Shown one piece after another: positions 3,170 through 14,183 of a DNA stretch of 64,000 nt (its first letter is position 1; each line of letters opens with the position of its first letter). The stretch comes from Bosea sp. 29B (GTDB taxonomy: Bacteria; Pseudomonadota; Alphaproteobacteria; Rhizobiales; Beijerinckiaceae). Under the pieces are notes generated by a model. It did no database searches. It saw only the letters and a list, made by a program, of their open reading frames with translations, and had not been told where the DNA came from. The DNA lies in contig NZ_LR733817.1 in NCBI RefSeq assembly GCF_902506165.1, positions 2,511,408 to 2,575,407 of the forward strand. The letters run 5' to 3'. The translations under genes were made by a program, and so were the position numbers.

Positions 3170-4702
3170 ATGCTGATGGATGCCGCCGGCTATCGCGAAT
3201 CCCTGCGTGCTTATCACCCGCGCGTCTTCGTCGGAGGGCAGCGGGTCGAGAGCGTCGCCGACGAGAAATTACTGCTGCCGGGGATCAACGGCATCGGTGT
3301 CACCTACGACCTTGCTCATGACGCGGCCTGCCGGCCGATCATGACCGTGGTGCAGGGGGCTTCCGGCAAGACCGTCAACCGCATGCTCCATATCGACGCC
3401 TCGTCCAGCGATCTTCTCGCCAAGCTCGAAGCGGTCCGCCTCGTCTGCAAGATCTCCGGCTGCGCCCAGCGCTATCTGACGCATGACGCCTTCAACGGCA
3501 TCCTGCAGGCGACGGTCAGGGCCGACGCCAATCACGACACCGACTACACCGAGCGCTTCTTCGCCTATATGCACCGCATCCAGGACGAGGACCTGACCTG
3601 CGGCGTCGCCATGACCGACGCCAAGGGCGACCGCTCGTTGCGGCCGGGCCTGCAGGCCAATCGCGATTCCTACGTTCACATCAAGGAACGCCGGGTGGAT
3701 GGCATCGTCATCCGCGGCACCAAGGCGATCGTCACCGGCGCGCCCTATGTCCACGAATTCCTGGTTATGCCTTGCCGCACTCACGCCAAGGGTGACGAGG
3801 ATTTCGCGGTGTGCTGCGCCGTGCCCTGCGATGCGGAGGGCATCACCATCGTGGCGCGCCCGGCCGGGCGGCCGGGCGATCCGGCAGCGAAATTCTCGGC
3901 GAAATACGGCCAGTCGACCGGCGCGGTGATGTTCGACGACGTCTTCGTGCCGTGGGAGCGTGTGTTCATGGCTGGCGAGATCGAGGAGGCCGGCTATCTC
4001 ACCACCAGCTACGCCACCCATCACCGCCATAGCTGCATCGCCGCCCGGGCCGGCTTCGGTGACCTCCTGATCGGCGCCGGCGCGCTGATGGTCGAAGCCA
4101 ACGGGCTCGATGCCGACAGGCATTCCCATGTCCGCGAGCAATTGGTCGAGCTGATCACCATCACCGAGAGCTTCTTCGCCTGCGGCGTCGCGGCCTCGGT
4201 CTATTGCAGCAAGGACGGCTCTAGCGTGGCGATGCCCGACGCAGTTTTCGCCAATATCGGCAAGCTGCTGCTCGCTACCAAGATCTACGACATGCACAGG
4301 ATTGCCCATTATGTTTCGGGAGGCTTGATCGTGGCGCTGCCCGGCCCGGACGAGGACCACAACCCTGAGACCTCCGCCTCGCTCTCGGCCGTGCTGACCG
4401 GGCGGCCGGACATCCCCTATGAGCAGCGCGCCGAGGTTGCCCGCTTCATCGAGGACCTCACGGTGTCCAAGGAGGCCGGCTGGTATTCGGTGATCTCGCT
4501 GCATGGCGGCGGCTCGCCCGAGGCGATGAAGCGCGAGATCTGGCGCAATTACCCGGTCATGGAGAAGGTCGCGCTGGTCGAGAGCCTGCTCGATCGCGGC
4601 GTGCTCGCTGACGGCTCGCGCGTCTCGAAGCAGCCCGGCCGCTGCTGCGTCACCGGCTGCGAGGTGCCCGAGCGCATGACGACACCGGAGGCGGCGGAAT
4701 GA
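3170..4702 (+). CDS. 4-hydroxyphenylacetate 3-hydroxylase / 4-hydroxybutyryl-CoA dehydratase-like flavoprotein
   Basis: The 510-residue product has the HpaB/AbfD acyl-CoA-dehydrogenase-like fold: an N-terminal region with SLRAYHPRVFVGG, a middle domain with the flavin-loop stretch YVHIKERRVDGIVIRGTKAI, and a helical C-terminal domain. AbfD carries a [4Fe-4S] cluster on a Cx3C pair and an Hx6C pair. Here the equivalent positions read Cys98/Tyr102 and His285/Ala292, so two ligands are missing. A flavin-dependent hydroxylase or dehydratase without the cluster is more likely. GGAGGAGG precedes the ATG. The stop overlaps the AidB start, implying consecutive steps on a shared substrate. Confidence 0.75.
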   Translation: MLMDAAGYRESLRAYHPRVFVGGQRVESVADEKLLLPGINGIGVTYDLAHDAACRPIMTVVQGASGKTVNRMLHIDASSSDLLAKLEAVRLVCKISGCAQRYLTHDAFNGILQATVRADANHDTDYTERFFAYMHRIQDEDLTCGVAMTDAKGDRSLRPGLQANRDSYVHIKERRVDGIVIRGTKAIVTGAPYVHEFLVMPCRTHAKGDEDFAVCCAVPCDAEGITIVARPAGRPGDPAAKFSAKYGQSTGAVMFDDVFVPWERVFMAGEIEEAGYLTTSYATHHRHSCIAARAGFGDLLIGAGALMVEANGLDADRHSHVREQLVELITITESFFACGVAASVYCSKDGSSVAMPDAVFANIGKLLLATKIYDMHRIAHYVSGGLIVALPGPDEDHNPETSASLSAVLTGRPDIPYEQRAEVARFIEDLTVSKEAGWYSVISLHGGGSPEAMKREIWRNYPVMEKVALVESLLDRGVLADGSRVSKQPGRCCVTGCEVPERMTTPEAAE

Positions 4703-6348
4703 CCATGCACGCTCACGCCACCCATCAGGTCCTCAACCAGGCTCGTCCCGCGACCGGCTGGAACGCCTTTTCCGGCGATGCGGTGCTGCAGGGCATTGTC
4801 GCACGCGGTGCACCTTGGGTTGCCGAGAAGGCTGCGGCGCTCGGCGCCCAGGCCGGCGATACCGACGTGCAGGAGCTCGCCCGCCTCGCCAACCGCCATG
4901 GGCCCGAGCTTCGGAGCCATGACCGCTACGGCAACCGCATCGACTGGATCGAGTTCCACCCGGCCTGGCACGAGCTGATGGCGCTAGCCTTTGCTCATGA
5001 GGTGCCTTCGCTCGCCTGGACGACGACGGAGCCGAACGGCCATCTCGGCCGCGCCGTGCTGTCCTATCTCTGGAACCAGGTCGAGCACGGGACGGGGTGC
5101 CCGACCGGCATGACCTATGCCGCCTTTCCCGGCCTCGCCCAGCCGGAATTTGCGCTCTGGCGGCAGAAGATCACCTCGGGCCGCTATGACAAGCGCCCGC
5201 TGCCGGTGGCGCTTAAAGAGGGCGCCAGCATCGGCTATGCGATGACCGAGAAGCAGGGCGGTTCCGACCTGCGCCAGACCCAGACCACGGCCCGCTTCCT
5301 CGAAGATACGCCGGAGGGCAGGGTCTATCTGATCACCGGGCACAAATGGTTCTTCTCGGTGCCGCAATCCGACGGGTTCTTCACCCTGGCGCAGACGCAA
5401 AGTGGCGTCTCCTGCCTGTTCTGCCCAGGCTTCCTGCCCGATGGCAGCCGCAACCGCCTGCAAATCCAGCGCCTCAAGGACAAGGCCGGCAACCGCTCCA
5501 ATGCCTCTTCCGAGGTCGAGTTCCGCGAGTGCCTCGGCTGGCTCGTCGGCGAGGAAGGCGCGGGCATCAAGGAAATCCTCAGCCATGCCCATCTGACGCG
5601 GCTCGACTTCGCCGTCGGCTCGGCCGGTCTGATGCGGCAGGCGCTGACGCTGGCATTGAACCACACCCAGTCCCGCCGGGGCTTTGGCTCTTCGCTCGCC
5701 GAGCAGCCGATGATGACCAATATTCTCGCCGATCTCGCGATCGACTCGGAAGCCTCGACCTTGATGGCCTTCCGTGTCGCCGCCGCGACCGATGCGATGG
5801 AGACGACCGAGCAGGAGCGTCATCTCGCCCGCGTCACCACCCCGCTCGCGAAGTTCTGGAACTGCAAGCGCGCCGCCGCCTTCGTCGTCGAGGCGCTGGA
5901 GTGTCATGGCGGCAACGGCTTCATCGAGGAGAACCCGATGGCGCGGCTCTATCGCGAGGCACCGCTCAACGCGATCTGGGAGGGCACCTCGAACATGATG
6001 TGCATGGACGTGCTGCGCGCCTTCAATCGCGAGCCGCGCACCAAGGAAGCCTTCATGATCGAGGTCGGCGCGGCGCGCGGCGCCAATCGCGCCCTCGACC
6101 GCTGGCTCGACCGGCTCGGCGACGAGGCTGCCAAACCCCGCAACGATGACGGCCATGGCCGCCGTCTCGCTAATCTGATGGCCTATGCGCTGCAGGCTTC
6201 GGAGTTGAGGAAGCATGCCGACGAGGCGGTGTTCGAGAGCTTCTGCCGCTCGCGGCTCGACGCCGACTGGGGCTATGTCTTCGGCACACTCGATCCGTCG
6301 CCGGAGCTGGCGGGGATCGTGCGGCGTGCGACTGTGGCGCAAGGCTGA
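4699..6348 (+). CDS. aidB: AidB-type acyl-CoA dehydrogenase
   Basis: The 549-residue protein matches the AidB branch of acyl-CoA dehydrogenases throughout. It has the N-terminal HQVLNQ signature, MTEKQGGSDLRQTQT for flavin binding, GHKWFFSVPQSDGFF, LKDKAGNRSNASSEVEF, and NAIWEGTSN, in which Glu428 lies at the catalytic-base position. E. coli AidB is induced in the adaptive response and has weak isovaleryl-CoA dehydrogenase activity. Here the gene is translationally coupled to an HpaB-like flavoprotein rather than an alkylation-response gene, so a catabolic role on an acyl-CoA is a fair alternative. Confidence 0.85.
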   Translation: MTMHAHATHQVLNQARPATGWNAFSGDAVLQGIVARGAPWVAEKAAALGAQAGDTDVQELARLANRHGPELRSHDRYGNRIDWIEFHPAWHELMALAFAHEVPSLAWTTTEPNGHLGRAVLSYLWNQVEHGTGCPTGMTYAAFPGLAQPEFALWRQKITSGRYDKRPLPVALKEGASIGYAMTEKQGGSDLRQTQTTARFLEDTPEGRVYLITGHKWFFSVPQSDGFFTLAQTQSGVSCLFCPGFLPDGSRNRLQIQRLKDKAGNRSNASSEVEFRECLGWLVGEEGAGIKEILSHAHLTRLDFAVGSAGLMRQALTLALNHTQSRRGFGSSLAEQPMMTNILADLAIDSEASTLMAFRVAAATDAMETTEQERHLARVTTPLAKFWNCKRAAAFVVEALECHGGNGFIEENPMARLYREAPLNAIWEGTSNMMCMDVLRAFNREPRTKEAFMIEVGAARGANRALDRWLDRLGDEAAKPRNDDGHGRRLANLMAYALQASELRKHADEAVFESFCRSRLDADWGYVFGTLDPSPELAGIVRRATVAQG

Positions 6349-6364: not shown

Positions 6365-7450
6365 TCAAGGCAGGTTCTCGCGCAGCACGATCTCGATGCC
6401 GGGCCGCGCCGTGCCCTCGGCCGCCGGCCGGCCGGCGCGCAGATTGGCGAAGATCGCGACGCAGCTCATCAGCGTCGCCAGAGGCTGCTGGGTGATGACC
6501 GCGTCCATTGTGCCGTCGACGAGGAGGCCGCGCGTCTCCGGCGTCAGGCCGTGGCCGACGAAGACGACGTCCTGCCGCCCGGCCTCCTTCAGCGCCCGGG
6601 CGATACCCTCCGGCCCGCCGCCGATATTGTAGATGCCGGCGAGGTCCGGATGCTGGCCCAGCAGGGTCTTGGTCTGGCGATAGTTCTTGGCCTCGTCGTC
6701 ATGACCCTCGCGCAGGCCGACGACCTTGATGTCCGGATAGAGCTCCTCGAACAGGTGCAGGAAGCCCATCTCGCGCTCCTCATGGGCGCGGTAGCTCAGG
6801 CTGCCGGCGATCATCGCCACTTTGGCGACTTTGGCCCGGCGCGGCCCGATGAAGCGGGCGATGAGCTGGCCGGCGGTGCGCCCGGCAGCACGGTTGTCGA
6901 GGCCGACATAGGCGGCGCGGGCGGTGTTGGCGATGTCGGAGATCAGCGTCACGCTCGGCACGCCGCGCTCGGCGAGGGCGTCGACCGCCTCGCGCACCGT
7001 CGGATGCTCCAGCGCCATGAAGGCGATGCCATCGACCTCGCGGCCGATGCGCCGGAGCTCATGGGCCAGCAGCTCCGGCTTGAAGCTCTCGATATGCTCG
7101 ACCCGGGCGCGCATGTTGAAGGAAGCGAGCTGATCCTGCGATCCGGCGATCAGCCGGCCGAGCAGGCCGAGGAAGCGATTGTTCCCGGCCGGCAGCAGGA
7201 AGCCGAGGCGCAAGGGGCGAAGCGCGCTCGCCGGCAGCGCACCCTCCATGACATAGCCGAGTTCGCCCGCCGCTTTCAGCACGCGCTGCACCGTCGCCGG
7301 CCGGACGCCCGGGCGCTGGTTCAGCACCCGGTCGACCGTCGCGGTCGAGACGCCAGCGAGGCGCGCGACGTCCTCGACCCGCGCCATCTGGCGGCGGCGT
7401 GGCCCGGACGGCTCGGACTCCTCGGCAAGCTTGGGGATCGGCGCGTTCAT
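6365..7450 (-). CDS. LacI family transcriptional regulator
   Basis: This 361-residue repressor has a LacI HTH at residues 24-60 (VEDVARLAGVSTATVDRVLN) followed by a hinge and a periplasmic-binding-like sugar domain (GFLLPAGNNRFLGLL, then VYNIGGGPEGIARAL-type motifs). It faces away from the TRAP transporter and RuBisCO-like genes across 113 bases, so it most likely represses that cluster and is relieved by the imported sugar acid or an intermediate. Start 7450 is the first in-frame ATG; its ribosome site is weak, and residue 22 is an alternative start. Confidence 0.87.
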   Translation of the reverse strand: MNAPIPKLAEESEPSGPRRRQMARVEDVARLAGVSTATVDRVLNQRPGVRPATVQRVLKAAGELGYVMEGALPASALRPLRLGFLLPAGNNRFLGLLGRLIAGSQDQLASFNMRARVEHIESFKPELLAHELRRIGREVDGIAFMALEHPTVREAVDALAERGVPSVTLISDIANTARAAYVGLDNRAAGRTAGQLIARFIGPRRAKVAKVAMIAGSLSYRAHEEREMGFLHLFEELYPDIKVVGLREGHDDEAKNYRQTKTLLGQHPDLAGIYNIGGGPEGIARALKEAGRQDVVFVGHGLTPETRGLLVDGTMDAVITQQPLATLMSCVAIFANLRAGRPAAEGTARPGIEIVLRENLP

Positions 7451-7526
7451 TCAATCAAAAACCATCAGAAAATGAGCTTGAAGACCATCAGACGCGATTT
7501 CTATGCTGAGCGTCAAGCACTCAAGA

Positions 7527-7539
7527 GCGATCAAATCGC
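7527..7539. promoter_or_regulatory. Candidate LacI operator half-sites
   Basis: GCGAT-CAA-ATCGC is a short inverted repeat 25 bases upstream of the TRAP receptor ATG, in the gap divergent from the LacI gene. LacI family sites usually centre on CG-rich dyads, so this is only a candidate. Confidence 0.35.
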
Positions 7540-7563
7540 ATCAGCACGTCCAGGGAGGACATC

Positions 7564-8580
7564 ATGACCGGACCGAGCCGCCGCACGCTCATCAAGGGCC
7601 TCGCCGCCGCCCCCGCCGCATCGCTGATCGGCATGCCGATGATCGCGCGGGCCGCCGAGATCGAGCTGAAATACGGCAACAACCTGCCGCTCAGCCACCC
7701 GCTCAACATCCGCGCCCAGCAGGCGGCCGAGCGCGTCGCCAAGGAGACCAACGGGCGGGTCGAGATCAAGATCTTCCCGAACAATCAGCTCGGCGGCGAC
7801 ACCGACATGCTGAGCCAGGTCCGCAATGGCGGCATCACCTTCTTCACTCCGTCGGCGCTGGTGATCGCGACCCTGGTGCCGGTCGCGGCGATCAACGCGG
7901 TCGGCTTCGCCTTCGCCGATTACGACCAGGTCTGGAAGGCGATGGACGGGCCGGTCGGCGCGCATGTCCGCGCCGCCATCGAGAAGGTCAATCTCTACGC
8001 CTTCGAGAAGATGTGGGACAATGGCTTCCGCCAGATGACCACCTCGGGCAAGGCGATCGAGCAGGCGGCCGACATGGCCTCGCTCAAGATTCGCGTGCCG
8101 GTCTCGCCGCTCTCGATCTCGATGTTCAAGGCGCTCGGCGCCGCCCCCGCCAGCCTGCAGTTCTCCGAGGTCTATTCGGCCCTGCAGACCAAGGTGGTCG
8201 ATGCCCAGGAGAACCCGCTGCCGATCATCCAGGTCGCCAAGCTCTACGAAGTCCAGAAGAGCTGCGCGGTCTCGAACCATATCTGGGACGGCTTCTGGTT
8301 CATCGCCAATGGCCGCGCCTGGAAGGGCCTGCCGGCGGACATCCAGAAGATCGTGGCGTCGGCCATCAACGATGCCGGCGTTGCCCAGCGCGGCGACATC
8401 AAGAGCCTCAACGATACCGTGCAGGCTGATCTGCAGTCGAAGGGGCTTGCCTTCAACAAGACCAACCCCGACAGCTTCCGGGCCAAGCTCCGCGACGGCG
8501 GGTTCTACAAGGAATGGCAGGAGCGCTTCGGCGCCGAGGCCTGGAGCCTGCTCGAGGGAGCGGTCGGCAAGCTCGCCTGA
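7564..8580 (+). CDS. TRAP transporter solute receptor, DctP family
   Basis: The 338-residue receptor carries a twin-arginine leader (SRRTLIKGLAAAPAAS, mature region from about residue 30). It has the DctP pattern, with GNNLPLSHPLNIRAQQAAERV at the N-terminus and IKIFPNNQLGGDTDMLSQVRNGG. The arginine that clamps the substrate carboxylate in DctP proteins probably lies in LKIRVPVSP. It binds an organic or sugar acid in the periplasm and passes it to the permease encoded next. GGGAGG lies just before the ATG. It is the first gene of the five-gene catabolic run. Confidence 0.9.
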   Translation: MTGPSRRTLIKGLAAAPAASLIGMPMIARAAEIELKYGNNLPLSHPLNIRAQQAAERVAKETNGRVEIKIFPNNQLGGDTDMLSQVRNGGITFFTPSALVIATLVPVAAINAVGFAFADYDQVWKAMDGPVGAHVRAAIEKVNLYAFEKMWDNGFRQMTTSGKAIEQAADMASLKIRVPVSPLSISMFKALGAAPASLQFSEVYSALQTKVVDAQENPLPIIQVAKLYEVQKSCAVSNHIWDGFWFIANGRAWKGLPADIQKIVASAINDAGVAQRGDIKSLNDTVQADLQSKGLAFNKTNPDSFRAKLRDGGFYKEWQERFGAEAWSLLEGAVGKLA

Positions 8581-8613
8581 GGCTTGCCGGGACCGACATC
8601 TCGGGGAAACGCC

Positions 8614-10491
8614 ATGGACGCTCACGCCGCCACTTTGCCGCCGCCGGCCGCGCCGGCGACCGGTTTAGGTCGCCTCGCGGACAGGCTCGACCGCGCCGTC
8701 GGCACGGTGGTCGAGCTTGTCGCAGCCGTGCTCGTCCTCGCCGAGATCGTCATCCTGGGTGCGGGCGTCACCGCCCGCTACGCCTTCCATGCGCCGCTGG
8801 TCTGGTCGGACGAGCTCGCCTCGATCCTGTTCCTCTGGCTTTCCATGCTCGGAGCGGTGGTGGCGCTGCGCCGCGGCGAGCATATGCGCATGACCGGGCT
8901 CGTCACTCGCGTCGGCCCGCAGGCGCGCCTCCTGCTCGAAGCGCTCGCCATCACCGCGGCGATCGCCTTCCTGGTGATGATCCTGCCGGATGCGCTGGAT
9001 TATGCCGAGGATGAGCGCTTCATCGTCACGCCGGCGCTGGAGATCGCCAATTCCTGGCGCGCGGCGGCACTGCCGATCGGCATCGTGCTGATGCTGTTCG
9101 CCGCCTTTTGCCGGCTGCTGCGCTTCGGCTCGTGGAAGACCGTCGTGCTCGCGGTCGCAGTCACCGTGGGGCTGATCGCGCTGTTCTATGTCGCCGGGCC
9201 GGTGCTGAAGCCGCTCGGCAAGCTCAATTTGGTGATCTTCTTCGTCGGCGTCGTCGCGGCGAACGTCTTCGCCGGGGTACCGATCGCCTTTTCCTTCGCG
9301 CTCGCCACCTTCGGCTATCTCTCGCTGACGACCTCGACGCCGATGGTCGTGATGGTCGGCCGGCTCGACGAGGGCATGAGCCATCTCATCCTGCTCGCCG
9401 TGCCATTGTTCATCTTCCTCGGCGCGCTGATCGAGATGACCGGCATGGCGCGCGCCATGATCCAGTTCCTGGCCTCGCTGCTCGGCCATGTCCGCGGCGG
9501 CCTGTCCTATGTGCTGGTCGGCGCGATGTATCTGGTCTCCGGCATCTCCGGCTCGAAGATCGCCGACATGGCCGCGATCGCGCCGGTGTTGTTCCCGGAG
9601 ATGCAAAAGCGCGGCGCCAAGCCCGGCGACCTCGTCGCGCTGCTTTCGGCGACGGGCGCGCAGACCGAGACGATTCCGCCTTCGATCGTGCTGATCACCA
9701 TCGGCTCGGTTACCGGCGTCTCGATCGCGGCGCTGTTCACCGGCGGCATGCTGCCGGCGGTCGTGCTCGGCATCGCCCTCTGCTTCGTCGTCTGGTGGCG
9801 CAACCGGGGCGAGGACCTCAGCCACGTCACGAAGTATTCGAAGCGTGAGATCGGCAAACTCTGCCTGATCGCAGCGCCGGCGATCGCGCTGCCCTTCGTC
9901 ATCCGCGCCGCCGTCGTCGAGGGCGTCGCCACCGCGACCGAGGTCTCGACGATCGGCATCGCCTATGCGGTGCTGGCCGGCATCTTGATCTATCGCCAGT
10001 TCGACTGGCGCCGGCTCAAGCGCATGCTGGTCGACACGGCGTCGCTCACCGGCGCGATCATCTTCATCATCGGCTGCGCCACCGCCATGGCCTGGGGGCT
10101 GACGCAGTCGGGCTTCTCGCAGGACCTCGCCAAGGTCATGGCCGCGGTGCCCGGCGGAACCTGGGGCTTCCTCGCCATCTCGATCATCGCCTTCGTCATC
10201 CTCGGCAGCGTGCTCGAGGGCATCCCGGCGATCGTGCTGTTCGGCCCGCTGCTCTTCCCGATCGCCAAGCAGATCGGCGTGCACGAGGTGCACTATTCGA
10301 TGGTCGTGATCTTCGCGATGGGCATCGGGCTTTTCGCCCCGCCCTTCGGCGTCGGCTATTACGGTGCCTGCGCGATCTCGAAGATCAATCCCGACGAGGG
10401 GCTGAAATACATCTGGGCCTATGTCGCAGCCCTTTTGGTCGGCCTCGTCATCGTAGCCGCCGTGCCGTGGTTCTCCATCGGCTTCCTCTAG
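8614..10491 (+). CDS. TRAP transporter permease, fused small and large subunits (DctQM)
   Basis: At 625 residues this is a single-chain fusion. About residues 20-185 form the four-helix DctQ part (ARYAFHAPLVWSDELASILFLWL is diagnostic). A linker helix follows, and residues from about 200 form the DctM part with PIAFSFALA, ETIPPSIVLITIG and LFAPPFGVGYYGA. It imports the substrate delivered by DctP using the sodium gradient. ATG 8614 is chosen because GGGGA precedes it at a good distance; an earlier ATG at 8584 lacks one. Confidence 0.9.
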   Translation: MDAHAATLPPPAAPATGLGRLADRLDRAVGTVVELVAAVLVLAEIVILGAGVTARYAFHAPLVWSDELASILFLWLSMLGAVVALRRGEHMRMTGLVTRVGPQARLLLEALAITAAIAFLVMILPDALDYAEDERFIVTPALEIANSWRAAALPIGIVLMLFAAFCRLLRFGSWKTVVLAVAVTVGLIALFYVAGPVLKPLGKLNLVIFFVGVVAANVFAGVPIAFSFALATFGYLSLTTSTPMVVMVGRLDEGMSHLILLAVPLFIFLGALIEMTGMARAMIQFLASLLGHVRGGLSYVLVGAMYLVSGISGSKIADMAAIAPVLFPEMQKRGAKPGDLVALLSATGAQTETIPPSIVLITIGSVTGVSIAALFTGGMLPAVVLGIALCFVVWWRNRGEDLSHVTKYSKREIGKLCLIAAPAIALPFVIRAAVVEGVATATEVSTIGIAYAVLAGILIYRQFDWRRLKRMLVDTASLTGAIIFIIGCATAMAWGLTQSGFSQDLAKVMAAVPGGTWGFLAISIIAFVILGSVLEGIPAIVLFGPLLFPIAKQIGVHEVHYSMVVIFAMGIGLFAPPFGVGYYGACAISKINPDEGLKYIWAYVAALLVGLVIVAAVPWFSIGFL

Positions 10492-10516
10492 ACATCTTCG
10501 CAGGAAAGCACCCGCC

Positions 10517-11056
10517 ATGAGCCGTCATTTTGGCCAGATCCGTCAGGCCGGCTATGTCGTCCCCGATATCGAGGCGGCGATGGACTATTGGAGCCGGGTG
10601 CTCGGCGTCGGGCCGTTCTTCTACAATCCAAAAGTCCCGATCAGGAACTACCGCTACAGGGGCGAAGCCTATGAGCCGCATAACTCGGTGGCGCTCGCCA
10701 ATTCCGGGCCGCTGCAGATCGAATTGATCCAGTGCCGCAACGCGGTGCCCTCCATGTACAAGGACTTCACCGACGCCGGCCATAGCGGCCTGCAGCATGT
10801 CGCCTACTGGACCTCGGACTACGATGCCGACCTGGCGCGGCTGTTGGCCGAGGGCTTCAAGCCGGTGATGTCGGGCGAGGTTGGCGAGCGCGGCCGCTTC
10901 ATCTATTTCGACACGCACTATCATCCGGGCACGGTGATCGAACTCTCCGAGGTTGCCGGTCCCAAGGGCGAGATGTTCCGGCTGATCCGCGAGGCGGGCG
11001 AGAGCTGGGACGGCAAGGCCCCGGTCCGTCCCTTCCCCGATCTCAGCAAGCTCTGA
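10517..11056 (+). CDS. VOC-superfamily protein (glyoxalase/epimerase-like), metabolic role unknown
   Basis: This 179-residue protein has two beta-alpha-beta-beta-beta modules: IRQAGYVVPDIEAAMDYWSR at the N-terminus and GLQHVAYWTSDYDADLARLL from residue 91. Candidate metal ligands by position are Gln10, Glu69 or Gln67, His94 and Glu142, with glutamine replacing the usual first histidine. VOC enzymes include methylmalonyl-CoA epimerase, glyoxalase and dioxygenases. It sits between the TRAP permease and the RuBisCO-like gene, so it probably isomerises or epimerises the imported acid sugar before phosphorylation. The reaction is unproven. Confidence 0.75.
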   Translation: MSRHFGQIRQAGYVVPDIEAAMDYWSRVLGVGPFFYNPKVPIRNYRYRGEAYEPHNSVALANSGPLQIELIQCRNAVPSMYKDFTDAGHSGLQHVAYWTSDYDADLARLLAEGFKPVMSGEVGERGRFIYFDTHYHPGTVIELSEVAGPKGEMFRLIREAGESWDGKAPVRPFPDLSKL

Positions 11057-11062
11057 GCGATC

Positions 11063-12337
11063 ATGGCGACCGAGCGTTTCACGGCCACCTATCTGATCGA
11101 GACGCCGCTCGATCCCCGCAAAGTCGCGGACGTCATGGCCGGCGAGCAGTCGAGCGGCACCTTCACCCGCGTCGCCGGCGAGACCGACGAACTGCGTGAC
11201 CGCACCCGCGCCGTCGTCATCGCGGTCGAGGAGCTCGATAGCGCAGCCGAGCCGAGCCTGCCCAATGCCTGGCTGGCACGGAAGGGTGTCAGCGGCCCAT
11301 GGCGCCGTGCCCGGATCACGCTGTCCTTCCCGGTCGACAATGTCGGCGCCAACCTGCCGACGCTGGCCTCGATCGTCGCCGGCAACCTGTTCGATCTCGG
11401 CGAGGTCACGGGCCTCAGGCTGGAGAGCATGGCCCTGCCGGCTGCCTATCGCCGGCTCTTCCCGTTGCCGACGCGCGGCATCGCCGGCACCCGCCGGGCG
11501 ACCGGTGTCATGGATGGTCCGATGATCGGCTCGATCATCAAGCCCAATGTCGGCCTGCGCCCCTATGAGACCGCAGAATTGGTCGGCAAGCTCTGCGCCG
11601 CCGGCCTCGACTTCATCAAGGATGACGAGATCTCGGCCGATCCGGTGCATGCGCCGCTGGCCCAGCGCGTCCCTGCGGTGATGGCCGCGGTGCGCCGCCA
11701 TCAGGACCGTACCGGCAAGGCGGTGATGGTCGCCTTCAACATCACCGCCGAAACCGACCAGATGCGCCGCCATGCCGAGTTGGTCGAGCGCGAGGGCGGC
11801 ACCTGCGTTATGGTCAGCCTGAACTGGTGCGGCTTCTCGGCGGTCGAGACCCTGCGCCGCTCGACCAGCCTCGCTCTCCATGGCCATCGCAACGGCTTCG
11901 GCGCGCTCTCGCGCCACCCGCTGCTCGGCATCGGCTTCCAGGCCTACCAGACGCTGTGGCGACTCACCGGCGTCGACCACATGCATGTGCATGGCTTGCA
12001 GGGCAAATTCGCGCAGGAGGACGAGGAGGTCGTGACCTCGGCCAAGGACTGCGTTACGCCGCTGACCGAGGGCATCGACGACCGCGTGCTGCCGGCCTTC
12101 TCCTCCGGGCAATGGGCCGGCACGGCGCAACCGACCTGGGATGCGATTGGCCATGACGACCTCTTGTTCATGGCCGGTGGCGGCATCCTCGCCCATCCCG
12201 CCGGACCGGCAGCCGGCGTCGCCAGCATCCGCCAGGCCTGGCAGGCAGTCGCGGCCGGCATACCGCTGAGCGAAGCGGCGAAGAGCCATAACGAGCTCGC
12301 GCAGGCGCTCGCCTTCTTCGGCAAGGGCGGCGGCTGA
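11063..12337 (+). CDS. RuBisCO-like protein (form IV), probable phosphorylated sugar-acid decarboxylase or isomerase
   Basis: The 424-residue sequence aligns along its whole length with RuBisCO large subunits. Residues equivalent to spinach E60, T65, N123, K175, K201, D203, E204, H294, R295, H327, K334 and S379 are present at E28, T33, N108, K160, K186, D188, E189, H275, R276, H308, K315 and S348. The K177 equivalent is Asn162. RuBisCO-like proteins paired with a DUF1537 kinase include OiaX, the 3-oxo-isoapionate-4-phosphate decarboxylase of apionate breakdown, so a similar reaction is the best guess. It lies six bases after the VOC stop and two bases before the kinase gene. It is not a CO2-fixing enzyme, as no small subunit or phosphoribulokinase is present. 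Confidence 0.85.
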   Translation: MATERFTATYLIETPLDPRKVADVMAGEQSSGTFTRVAGETDELRDRTRAVVIAVEELDSAAEPSLPNAWLARKGVSGPWRRARITLSFPVDNVGANLPTLASIVAGNLFDLGEVTGLRLESMALPAAYRRLFPLPTRGIAGTRRATGVMDGPMIGSIIKPNVGLRPYETAELVGKLCAAGLDFIKDDEISADPVHAPLAQRVPAVMAAVRRHQDRTGKAVMVAFNITAETDQMRRHAELVEREGGTCVMVSLNWCGFSAVETLRRSTSLALHGHRNGFGALSRHPLLGIGFQAYQTLWRLTGVDHMHVHGLQGKFAQEDEEVVTSAKDCVTPLTEGIDDRVLPAFSSGQWAGTAQPTWDAIGHDDLLFMAGGGILAHPAGPAAGVASIRQAWQAVAAGIPLSEAAKSHNELAQALAFFGKGGG

Positions 12338-12339
12338 GC

Positions 12340-13626
12340 ATGGCTGAGGCAGGCCCGCGCTACGGCTGGTATGGCGACGACTTCACTGGCGCCACCGACA
12401 CGCTCGCCGCGCTGGCGGAAGCCGGACAGCGCGCTCTGCTCTTCCTGCGCATCCCGACGCCTGAGCAATTCGCCAGTGCCGGAGCGCTGGACGCGGTCGG
12501 CATCGCCGGGGCGACGCGGGCGATGGCACCTGACGCCATGGCGCAGGAGCTGGACGGGGCAGGACGCTTCTTCGCCGCGCTTGGTATCGGCCTGCTGCAC
12601 TACAAATGCTGCTCGACTTTCGACAGCGCGCCCGAGGTCGGCAGCCTTGGCGCGGCGGCGCGTGCCTTGCGGCCGCATTTCCGCAATCCATTGCTGCCGG
12701 TGATCGGCGGCCAGCCCAATCTCGGGCGCTACTGCGTATTCGGCAATCTCTTTGCCGCGGCCGGAGCGGGCGGTACGGTTCACCGCATCGACCGCCATCC
12801 GACCATGAGCGTCCATCCGGTCACGCCGATGGGCGAGGCGGATTTGCGGCGGCATCTCCAGGCGCAGGGGCTGGAGCGCGTCGCGCTCGTCGATTACCGC
12901 AGCCATGAGGTCGCCGAAGCCGGACAGGCCCTCGATATCGCGCTGGCGTCGCAGCCCGATGCCGTGCTCTTCGACGTCTCGCGCCCCTCCGATCTCACAG
13001 CGATCGGCGCCTTGCTGCGCGAGCAGATGAGCGCGGGCCCGATGATCGCGATCGGCGCGAGCTCGGTGGCGCAGGCTTTCGCCGGTTTCCCGAAGGCTGC
13101 CCAACCCGCGATGCCGAAGCTCGCGCGCAGCGAGTCGGGTGGCAACCTGCTTGCTCTGGTCGGCAGCCTGTCGCCTGTGACCCGCGCGCAGGTCGAGCTC
13201 GCCCAGGGTTATGGGACGATCGCCATCGATCCGGCGCGGCTGACCGGCGAGCCTGCCTACCTCGAAGCGCTACGCCGCGAGACGCTCGCTCGCCTGACGA
13301 AGCGCAATGTCATGCTGATCACCGACAAGCCGGCTGGTGCGCCGGCCGAGACCGGCAAGGTCGCCGCTGCGACCGGTGCTTTGCTGCGCGCAATCATGGC
13401 CGAGGCGCGGATCGCGCGGCTGGTCGTCGCCGGTGGGGATACCTCCACGCTGGCGATCCGCTCGCTTGATCTGTGGGGCCTGTCCTATCGCTCGCCCTGT
13501 ACGCCGGGCGCGCCGCTCTGCCGCGCCCATAGCGATGATGCCGGGCTGGATGGCCTCGATATCGTGCTGAAGGGCGGCCAGATGGGCACGCCCGACTTCT
13601 TCAACCGTGTCGCCGAGACGGCTTGA
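12340..13626 (+). CDS. Four-carbon acid sugar kinase family protein (DUF1537, OtnK/OiaK-like)
   Basis: The 428-residue protein begins with YGDDFTGATDTLAALAEAG, the substrate-binding signature of DUF1537 kinases, and ends with VVAGGDTSTLAIRSL and DIVLKGGQMGTPDFF, the ATP-binding end of the family. Characterised members phosphorylate threonate, erythronate, 2-oxo-tetronates or 3-oxo-isoapionate. It is only two bases from the RuBisCO-like gene, so it probably makes the phosphorylated substrate of that enzyme. It is the last gene in the run; a convergent lipoprotein gene follows. Confidence 0.87.
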   Translation: MAEAGPRYGWYGDDFTGATDTLAALAEAGQRALLFLRIPTPEQFASAGALDAVGIAGATRAMAPDAMAQELDGAGRFFAALGIGLLHYKCCSTFDSAPEVGSLGAAARALRPHFRNPLLPVIGGQPNLGRYCVFGNLFAAAGAGGTVHRIDRHPTMSVHPVTPMGEADLRRHLQAQGLERVALVDYRSHEVAEAGQALDIALASQPDAVLFDVSRPSDLTAIGALLREQMSAGPMIAIGASSVAQAFAGFPKAAQPAMPKLARSESGGNLLALVGSLSPVTRAQVELAQGYGTIAIDPARLTGEPAYLEALRRETLARLTKRNVMLITDKPAGAPAETGKVAAATGALLRAIMAEARIARLVVAGGDTSTLAIRSLDLWGLSYRSPCTPGAPLCRAHSDDAGLDGLDIVLKGGQMGTPDFFNRVAETA

Positions 13627-13638
13627 GCCGGCCTCATC

Positions 13639-13962
13639 TTACGGGCAGACGAAGCCACCCTGATTGTCGGGCACGCAGCGCGCGCCGTTCGGCAGGTTGA
13701 GCGCGCCGGAGCGGTCACGCCGGACATAGGCGCCATTGGGCAGGCTGAAGCCGCCGCTCTGGTCGGTCTGAACACGCGTTCCATCAGGCAATTGCAGGCC
13801 ACCGGCGCCATCACTGACAATACGCTTGGTCATCGCGGTGGGGCCCGGCGCGGGGCTGGGCGCCAGGCCGGGAGGCGGGGCGCCGAAGCGCTGCGGCTGC
13901 GAACAACCAGCCGTGATACCGGCGAGACCGATCGCCCCGGCCACGAAGAATACGCGTCTCAT
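13639..13962 (-). CDS. Small lipoprotein with 16-residue internal repeats
   Basis: The 107-residue product has a short signal sequence ending in the lipobox ITAGC, so it should be lipidated and anchored in a membrane. After a proline-rich linker come three and a half repeats of about 16 residues, each with a G-(G/A)-hydrophobic-x-LP(D/N)G core, ending in NQGGFVCP. GAGGAGG lies eight bases upstream of ATG 13962, which is preferred over an in-frame TTG at 13980. The function is unknown. Confidence 0.7.
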   Translation of the reverse strand: MRRVFFVAGAIGLAGITAGCSQPQRFGAPPPGLAPSPAPGPTAMTKRIVSDGAGGLQLPDGTRVQTDQSGGFSLPNGAYVRRDRSGALNLPNGARCVPDNQGGFVCP

Positions 13963-14183
13963 CCCAATCCGCCTCCTCAATATGCCTTCATCAAATCCGC
14001 AGTCTCCAGCAAGGCCGGGCCGCGGTCCAGCGCGCCGCCGCGCGCGGCGGCAGGATCGACCAGTGATTGTGCCGCTTTCATGACGAGCAGGTCAGACGCT
14101 GGCGCATGGCCGGAAGGATTGCCTAGCCCCCCGGATATCCGCGACAGTTCCATCCGGGACGGAACGGCGGAGAAGAAGAGCGC

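What the first reader, a model, noticed from the sequence alone, without database searches (positions are those of the whole stretch)
6365..13626. TRAP-fed RuBisCO-like pathway with a VOC protein and DUF1537 kinase
A LacI regulator is divergent from a TRAP receptor, fused TRAP permease, VOC protein, RuBisCO-like protein and DUF1537 kinase, with gaps of 2 to 33 bases between the plus-strand genes. Pairs of RuBisCO-like protein and DUF1537 kinase are known in 3-oxo-isoapionate-4-phosphate breakdown (OiaK/OiaX). The usual apionate lactonase or oxidoisomerase genes are missing and a VOC protein takes their place. This suggests a different acid sugar or a new entry reaction catalysed by the VOC enzyme.
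Basis: partly seen in the sequence, partly recalled or inferred. Interest (0 to 1): 0.78.

Follow-up and report, generated by a model that had tools for sequence, protein, structure and literature searches.

The report
RuBisCO-like sugar-acid operon with VOC enzyme
A small gene set, kept together in many soil, plant and sea bacteria, probably breaks down an unknown acid sugar with a relative of the plant CO2-fixing enzyme plus an unusual partner enzyme whose reaction nobody has assigned in anything I could read.

Summary
The operon is real: divergent LacI gene, TRAP receptor, fused TRAP permease, VOC protein, RuBisCO-like protein (RLP), DUF1537 kinase; gaps 2-33 bases. In the best 80 named proteobacterial loci VOC precedes this RLP type in 78 (the two misses are contig ends), the kinase follows in 80, LacI is seen in 75; the transporter changes type. 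The RLP is not OiaX (445 bits, cut-off 700; nine clade members of true OiaX type score 754-791). It is its own well-supported clade, nearer in identity to the clade holding the RLP of the genome I identify as Xanthobacter autotrophicus Py2 (OiaT); the root among the three clades is unresolved. It keeps RuBisCO/OiaT-type residues that OiaX lacks and has its own beside the catalytic motifs. The LacI-transporter-VOC front end has other back ends: OiaT-clade RLP plus kinase (two loci), or PdxA, kinase and aldolase. So VOC most likely acts at entry, where ApnO acts in D-apionate operons. Proposal: VOC makes a branched 3-oxo acid, the kinase phosphorylates it, the RLP cleaves it to 3-phosphoglycerate and a two-carbon acid. 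Substrate and VOC reaction are unproven. An ApnO-like gene lies elsewhere in this genome, so 'missing' holds only for the operon.

The parts
6365..7450 (-). LacI-family regulator, divergent from the operon
   Evidence: Pfam LacI 54.7 bits + Peripla_BP_4 149 bits; at the same place in 75 of 80 named loci, 44-94% identity
7454..7467 (+). candidate operator ATCAAAAACCATCA between LacI and the receptor gene
   Evidence: same or nearly the same motif in the LacI/receptor gap of most of the 14 relatives printed; the only exact copy in the genome, with two 1-mismatch copies elsewhere, by reading near phoH/miaB and a phosphoesterase-like gene; function inferred
7478..7507 (+). promoter-like TTGAAG-N18-TATGCT
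   Evidence: read; several relatives show TTGACG...TATCGT at the matching place; inferred
7564..8580 (+). TRAP solute receptor (DctP)
8614..10491 (+). fused TRAP permease (DctQ-DctM)
   Evidence: DctQ 90.9 and DctM 345.9 bits; alternative start TTG 8584
10517..11056 (+). VOC-fold protein, candidate metal-dependent entry isomerase
   Evidence: Glyoxalase_4 88.8 bits; Q10, E69, H94, E142 invariant in 50 of 50 aligned relatives, lined up with 3gm5
11063..12337 (+). RuBisCO-like protein, own clade, nearer OiaT than OiaX in identity
   Evidence: RuBisCO_large 227 bits; OiaX model 445 against cut-off 700; trees; identities; solved relative 3nwr, 657 bits
12340..13626 (+). DUF1537 (four-carbon acid sugar) kinase
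   Evidence: SBD_N 163 and NBD_C 96 bits; OiaK model 311 against cut-off 700

Best explanation
A LacI-controlled uptake and breakdown operon for a small acid sugar. The transporter brings in the acid. VOC, a metal-dependent cofactor-free enzyme, converts it (or its first product) into a branched 3-oxo acid, either 3-oxo-isoapionate or a close analogue. The kinase phosphorylates the terminal hydroxyl. The RLP treats the 4-phosphate as OiaT does: it removes and re-adds the carboxyl group on the neighbouring carbon and hydrolyses the bond, giving 3-phosphoglycerate and a two-carbon acid (glycolate if the substrate is 3-oxo-isoapionate), so no further dedicated enzyme is needed. Shown here: gene order, conservation, clade, conserved catalytic residues, swaps of back ends. 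Inferred: VOC at entry, kinase and RLP reactions by kinship. Guessed: the compound and the VOC reaction.
For: Three enzymes and no more recur: of the 104 loci with this RLP, 102 have VOC (the two misses are contig ends) and 104 the kinase. No triose-phosphate-isomerase-type or ApnO-like gene was found in their fetched flanks (0 of 105), whereas 9 of 21 OiaX-clade rows have such an isomerase neighbour. The window clade is supported 100/99 and the OiaT clade 100/98 (100/99 and 93/98 with an outgroup). The OiaT clade holds the single RLP at E 1e-60 or better of G941, next to an ApnO-like gene and a kinase. N108 and H308 (N123 and H327 of RuBisCO, numbering recalled) are in all 28 OiaT-clade rows and in 100% of the window clade, but are G and Q in all 14 OiaX-clade rows. 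VOC at entry: LacI-transporter-VOC occurs with an OiaT-clade RLP plus OiaK-like kinase in L135 and L186, and without local RLP in L195 and L234, whose genomes hold an OiaT-clade RLP elsewhere.
Against: The window RLP has residues of its own beside the catalytic motifs (D111, N162, A238, H310, G314, E322, T354), where the G941 protein has E, S, H, N, N, S, Q, so the substrate may differ; two of them also occur once each among 28 OiaT-clade rows (A238, T354). The three clades cannot be rooted: with the one distant outgroup at hand the order is open, so a common origin with OiaT is not shown. The VOC front end also goes with PdxA in 8 of 8 loci L196-L203, in 7 of them with kinase, DeoR and aldolase; a PdxA-type dehydrogenase expects a hydroxyl where a 3-oxo acid has none. 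An SDR dehydrogenase lies near 8 of 105 loci, so an oxidation step may be missing from the short operon. The own genome has an ApnO-like gene that could feed the kinase in trans. No ligand is known; the 4oan relative sits beside an acyl-CoA synthetase-like gene, not an RLP. Held papers cite work on RLPs in four-carbon acid sugar breakdown, which fits a linear acid too.
Confidence: 0.43

Rival explanations
1. The RLP is a plain decarboxylase (like OiaX) and VOC works downstream, isomerising or epimerising the resulting ketose phosphate, which general metabolism then consumes.
For: VOC enzymes with a Q-E-H-E type site do proton-shuttle isomerisations (recalled for glyoxalase I); the site is invariant in 50 of 50. 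The best-scoring curated models are OiaX and OiaK, though below cut-off; no OiaT model is among the NCBIfam hits shown.
Against: N108 and H308 are kept as in OiaT and lost in OiaX; identity is nearer OiaT. VOC stays with LacI and the transporter when RLP is absent or swapped, which fits an entry role better.
Confidence: 0.2
2. Linear acid: VOC epimerises or isomerises a four-carbon oxo acid (3-oxo-tetronate type), the kinase makes the 4-phosphate, and the RLP or, in other genomes, PdxA turns it into dihydroxyacetone phosphate.
For: DUF1537 kinases act on four-carbon acids (review passage; weaker model hits); two held papers cite Zhang 2016 for RLPs in sugar or four-carbon acid sugar breakdown (passages); PdxA back ends in 8 of 8 loci L196-L203.
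Against: The kinase fits OiaK (311 bits) better than 3-oxo-tetronate kinase (154) or D-threonate kinase (59); the aldolase of the PdxA loci would be superfluous; the similarity of VOC to methylmalonyl-CoA epimerase is not significant (E 0.16; 21 bits against 115).
Confidence: 0.14
3. The operon is the lower half of D-apionate use in this genome: the unlinked ApnO-like enzyme makes 3-oxo-isoapionate and VOC only handles a side product or an alternative isomer.
For: ApnO-like gene at G000:C1:4923615, 83% identical to the one beside an OiaT-clade RLP.
Against: By reading, that gene has GlxR-type, cyclase, amidohydrolase and CoA-transferase neighbours and no RLP or kinase; no operator copy near it; no ApnO-like gene in the flanks of 105 VOC-type loci.
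Confidence: 0.12
4. The RLP is an oxygenase, as reported for the D-hamamelose pathway of Ochrobactrum anthropi, giving 3-phosphoglycerate and glycolate with O2; the substrate is another branched acid.
For: A research paper says that this RLP is surrounded by hamamelose genes and performs the last step, with 3-phosphoglycerate and glycolate (PMC8914248, passages); another lists the oxygenase paper (PMC10176493, passages). RuBisCO residues are kept here.
Confidence: 0.1

Closest known systems
OiaT/OiaK D-apionate route of Xanthobacter autotrophicus (3-oxo-isoapionate-4-phosphate transcarboxylase/hydrolase)
   Same: RLP with the same catalytic core including N108 and H308, DUF1537 kinase next door
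   Different: RLP 49% identical to the G941 one and in a separate clade; VOC instead of an ApnO-like gene; LacI and TRAP instead of (by reading) an MFS and a LysR gene; own residues near catalytic motifs
OiaX/OiaK D-apionate route (3-oxo-isoapionate-4-phosphate decarboxylase)
   Same: RLP plus DUF1537 kinase pair
   Different: 445 bits against 754-791 for nine OiaX-clade RLPs; separate clade; OiaX has G at 108 and Q at 308 and often isomerase neighbours
RuBisCO-like protein 3nwr (solved structure, molecule name only 'A rubisco-like protein')
   Same: 657 bits; carries the window clade's residues at 111, 162, 238, 310, 314, 322, 351 and 354 in the alignment
   Different: no function in the name shown; its gene neighbourhood was not seen
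D-threonate kinase / PdxA2 route
   Same: some relatives pair the VOC front end with PdxA and a DUF1537 kinase
   Different: here an RLP takes the place of PdxA; kinase is nearer OiaK
D-hamamelose pathway RLP of Ochrobactrum anthropi
   Same: reported end products 3-phosphoglycerate and glycolate (PMC8914248 passages)
   Different: not comparable here: sequence not available

Membership tests
OiaX (NF042437) | score over the curated cut-off of 700 bits | tested here: not met
   445.1 bits, 444.8 in the whole genome search; nine of nine scanned OiaX-clade RLPs score 754-791
OiaX (NF042437) | inside the OiaX clade | tested here: not met
   OiaX clade 100/100 and window clade 100/99 are separate, also with an outgroup
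OiaT | inside the clade of the Xanthobacter autotrophicus RLP | tested here: not met
OiaT | RuBisCO-type catalytic residues kept, incl. N123 and H327 positions | tested here: met
   N108, K160, K186, D188, E189, H275, R276, H308, K315 as in OiaT; RuBisCO numbering recalled
OiaT | makes 3-phosphoglycerate and glycolate from 3-oxo-isoapionate 4-phosphate | not testable with these tools
   needs an assay; products recalled
OiaK (NF042436) | score over the curated cut-off of 700 bits | tested here: not met
   311.3 bits; the kinases beside VOC and an OiaT-clade RLP in L135 and L186 score 551 and 510, also below
D-apionate operon | ApnO beside RLP and kinase | tested here: not met
   0 of 105 VOC-type loci have an ApnO-like gene in the fetched flank; in the own genome it is unlinked
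VOC metalloenzymes (glyoxalase I type) | the four conserved metal-ligand positions | tested here: met
   Q10, E69, H94, E142 invariant in 50 of 50, aligned to 3gm5; ligand roles recalled, metal binding untested
RuBisCO (forms I-III) | score over curated RuBisCO models | tested here: not met
   234.5 against 497.45 (TIGR03326) and 225.9 against 438 (NF003252)
D-hamamelose RLP oxygenase | clade of the Ochrobactrum anthropi RLP | not tested
   paper and sequence not held

The most novel reading that the evidence does not exclude
VOC is the first metal-dependent, NAD-free alpha-ketol isomerase: it moves a hydroxymethyl group (2-oxo-apionate to 3-oxo-isoapionate, or a close analogue), so that ApnO's combined oxidation and migration is here split between a separate SDR dehydrogenase (in or near the operon in 8 of 105 loci) and VOC. 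The RLP is a new substrate class of transcarboxylase with its own active-site residues.
Probability: 0.13. Interest if true: 0.85.

Novelty: new variant of a known kind. Interest (0 to 1): 0.6.

Why it matters
It gives an experimentally open RLP clade, which contains a solved structure without a stated function (3nwr), a complete and short gene context and a ready test: three enzymes, one receptor, one regulator. If the VOC step is an entry isomerisation, it would add a reaction type to a well-known fold. If the RLP is a transcarboxylase on a new acid, it would widen the known chemistry of RuBisCO's relatives. The operon is spread over alpha- and betaproteobacteria from soil, plants and sea, so the substrate is probably common.

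Tried and rejected
Rejected: OiaX/OiaK membership. Dropped on checking: my first wording that the window clade is OiaT's sister; the earlier trees were rooted at the midpoint for drawing only, and a tree with one distant outgroup (the genome's other RLP) left the order of the three clades open and warned of long branches. Likewise two rows that lie beside the window clade (L126 with an ApnO-like gene, L184 with an SDR; 97/87) lose that place, so I do not claim that VOC was gained late. On checking I also found held passages that cite RLPs in four-carbon acid sugar breakdown; for these two reasons I lowered the best explanation from 0.45 to 0.43 and raised the linear-acid rival from 0.10 to 0.14.

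Not taken as proof: the names '3-oxo-isoapionate-4-phosphate transcarboxylase/hydrolase' that a source gives to two 83% identical proteins, P0013 and P0014; P0013 lies in the VOC clade. JGI's same name for P0318, P0337-P0341 and P0352; of these P0318, P0337 and P0352 were put in a tree and fall in the OiaT clade.

Led nowhere or weakened: the receptor's best structure, 4oan (RPB_2686 of Rhodopseudomonas palustris HaA2). I recall that its ligand density was modelled as (S)-2-acetolactate; the titles shown are cut before the ligand, and only a review passage says that 2-acetolactate was a new TRAP ligand. Receptor matches at E 1e-90 are in 110 of 248 genomes of that family. So the ligand cannot be carried over. 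A palindromic operator search gave nothing common to all. The first structure job (receptor alone) gave pLDDT 35 and was not used; no structure of VOC was made. Papers: Carter 2018, Kim 2018 and Zhang 2016 are not held; what I say of them comes from passages of held papers or recall. That the VOC/RLP/DUF1537 operon is undescribed rests only on searches of an open-licence library, seen as listings with passages of some papers, and on generic RefSeq names.


Full report
WHAT IS THERE. The window (from a Bosea-like genome: nearest named relatives are Bosea) holds a divergent LacI gene and five plus-strand genes with gaps of 33, 25, 6 and 2 bases: receptor, fused TRAP permease, VOC, RLP, DUF1537 kinase. 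The next open frame downstream (13639-13980) is on the other strand. Upstream lie an HpaB-type and an AidB-type gene.

CONSERVATION. A scan of named genomes returned the best 80 loci, RLP identity 59-92%, from alpha- and betaproteobacteria by their names. VOC is present in 78 of 80 (L081 and L095 start at RLP on a contig end), the kinase in 80 of 80, LacI in 75 of 80. These are similarity-selected and include a few genomes twice. In a draw of 297 genomes of the order, RLP matches at 61-100% identity lie in 12 genomes, and all 12 have VOC. The transporter varies: a fused TRAP permease group in 51 loci, a three-gene TRAP in 13-14, and a group with an SBP_bac_3 type ABC transporter in 9 (Pfam on single members). 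Two plasmid records with RefSeq annotation show the same run under generic names.

WHICH RLP. The RLP scores 445 bits on OiaX (cut-off 700) and the kinase 311 on OiaK (cut-off 700). In a 109-row tree and a 59-row tree with bootstrap RLPs of this kind form three groups. (1) The window clade, 100/99. In G941 it lies beside an ApnO-like gene and a DUF1537 kinase. (3) The OiaX clade, 100/100: nine of nine scanned members score 754-791 bits on OiaX, while the G941 RLP scores 430; 9 of 21 rows have a triose-phosphate-isomerase-type neighbour. 'ApnO-like' is my name for a family with Pfam PGDH_C (measured on one member); it is in 39 of the 67 fetched loci outside the window clade. The window RLP is 49-56% identical to 28 OiaT-clade rows (mean 52) and 42-46% to 14 OiaX-clade rows (mean 44). 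The order of the three clades is not resolved by the one distant outgroup tried.

RESIDUES. Positions 160, 186, 188, 189, 275, 276 and 315, which I match from memory to K175, K201, D203, E204, H294, R295 and K334 of RuBisCO, are invariant in the three groups. N108 (N123) and H308 (H327) are in 100% of 86 window-clade sequences and 28 of 28 OiaT-clade rows, and are G and Q in 14 of 14 OiaX-clade rows. The window clade has D111, N162, A238, H310, G314, E322 and T354, each in 97-100% of 86 sequences; the 28 OiaT-clade rows have E, S, H (27; one A), N, N (26; two S), S (27; one T) and Q (26; one T, one H). 162, 310 and 314 are within two residues of a catalytic position. 3nwr, a solved RLP without a function in its name, shows the window type at all seven. 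So the window RLP is a sharply defined subfamily: OiaT-like core, own surroundings.

VOC AND ITS PLACE IN THE PATHWAY. Q10, E69, H94 and E142 are invariant in 50 of 50 aligned VOC proteins and line up with the likely metal ligands of 3gm5. VOC at E 1e-15 or better is in 29 of 297 genomes of the order and 25 of 398 of the phylum, the own genome in both. I fetched 30 VOC loci, picked mainly because no RLP was known beside them: 5 (L211-L213, L218, L219) have the window-type RLP, 25 show no RLP match nearby. L135 and L186 have LacI, transporter and VOC with an OiaT-clade RLP and an OiaK-like kinase (551 and 510 bits); the two RLPs lie apart in the trees, so this swap probably happened twice. L195 and L234 have LacI, receptor and VOC and no RLP nearby, while their genomes carry an OiaT-clade RLP elsewhere. 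L196-L203 all have PdxA, and L197-L203 also an OiaK-like kinase, a DeoR regulator and a DeoC/LacD-type aldolase (families measured on L199). In the VOC tree these PdxA types sit in two places. VOC proteins at 51-55% identity in L204-L210 and L214-L216 sit in other company (for L204: TctC, DOPA-dioxygenase and MetE-like by Pfam; LacI and P450 by reading), and those at 30-40% are more distant still. So the steady company of VOC within its close family is the transporter and usually LacI, which argues for a step at entry. The PdxA sets are an honest difficulty: PdxA oxidises a hydroxyl, which a 3-oxo acid lacks.

OWN GENOME. It has no RLP over the OiaX cut-off and one other, distant RLP, an ApnO-like gene at 83% identity away from any RLP or kinase, a second DUF1537 kinase (by eye of the OtnK kind) and an SDR with the GWGNGK motif at 50% identity, by reading beside a lactate-permease-like gene. 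An SDR with this motif is in the flank or operon of 8 of 105 loci, for example between LacI and the receptor in L236 and L237. The candidate operator occurs exactly once in the genome, here.

MECHANISM. Residues and identity make an OiaT-like RLP step the best guess: phosphorylated branched 3-oxo acid to 3-phosphoglycerate and a two-carbon acid. (The products of OiaT are recalled; a held paper gives the same pair for the hamamelose RLP.) That would explain why three enzymes suffice. VOC would supply the 3-oxo acid without NAD. The boldest form is that VOC performs the hydroxymethyl migration that ApnO couples to oxidation. Nothing here proves the compound.

VERDICT. A new variant of a known kind of pathway.

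Noticed in passing
window 3170-6348: HpaB-type hydroxylase and AidB-type acyl-CoA dehydrogenase genes, overlapping by four bases, next to the operon; no sign seen that they belong to it.
   Followed up: no
L263:8210-9334 (G000:C1:386398): A second, distant RLP in the same genome, by reading beside a nitroreductase-like gene and an ABC transporter of the sulfonate/nitrate type; possibly another unassigned RLP context.
   Followed up: no
L225 (G892:C1:3063000-3078000): The 4oan-type TRAP receptor sits with its permease and an acyl-CoA synthetase-like gene; receptor matches at E 1e-90 are in 110 of 248 genomes of that family.
   Followed up: partly
L196-L203: VOC front end with PdxA (8 of 8) and, in 7 of 8, an OiaK-like DUF1537 kinase, DeoR and a DeoC/LacD-type aldolase: a second unassigned acid-sugar route without RLP.
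   Followed up: partly
L204-L210, L214-L216: VOC relatives at 51-55% identity in other company; L204 and L206 sit with LacI, TctC receptor, P450, DOPA-dioxygenase-like and MetE-like genes (partly by reading).
   Followed up: no
L145, L184, L189, L190: RLP and kinase with SDR dehydrogenases, three of the four with a receptor like the window's, and no ApnO-like or VOC gene in the fetched flank: perhaps direct oxidation of another isomer.
   Followed up: partly
L258 (G000:C1:4915000-4933000): Unlinked ApnO-like gene among, by reading, GlxR-type reductase, cyclase, amidohydrolase, CoA-transferase and enoyl-CoA hydratase genes.
   Followed up: partly
L059, L072, L092, L096, L107: A fused TRAP permease (48-49% identical) lies on the LacI side of the divergent pair, the receptor on the VOC side.
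   Followed up: no
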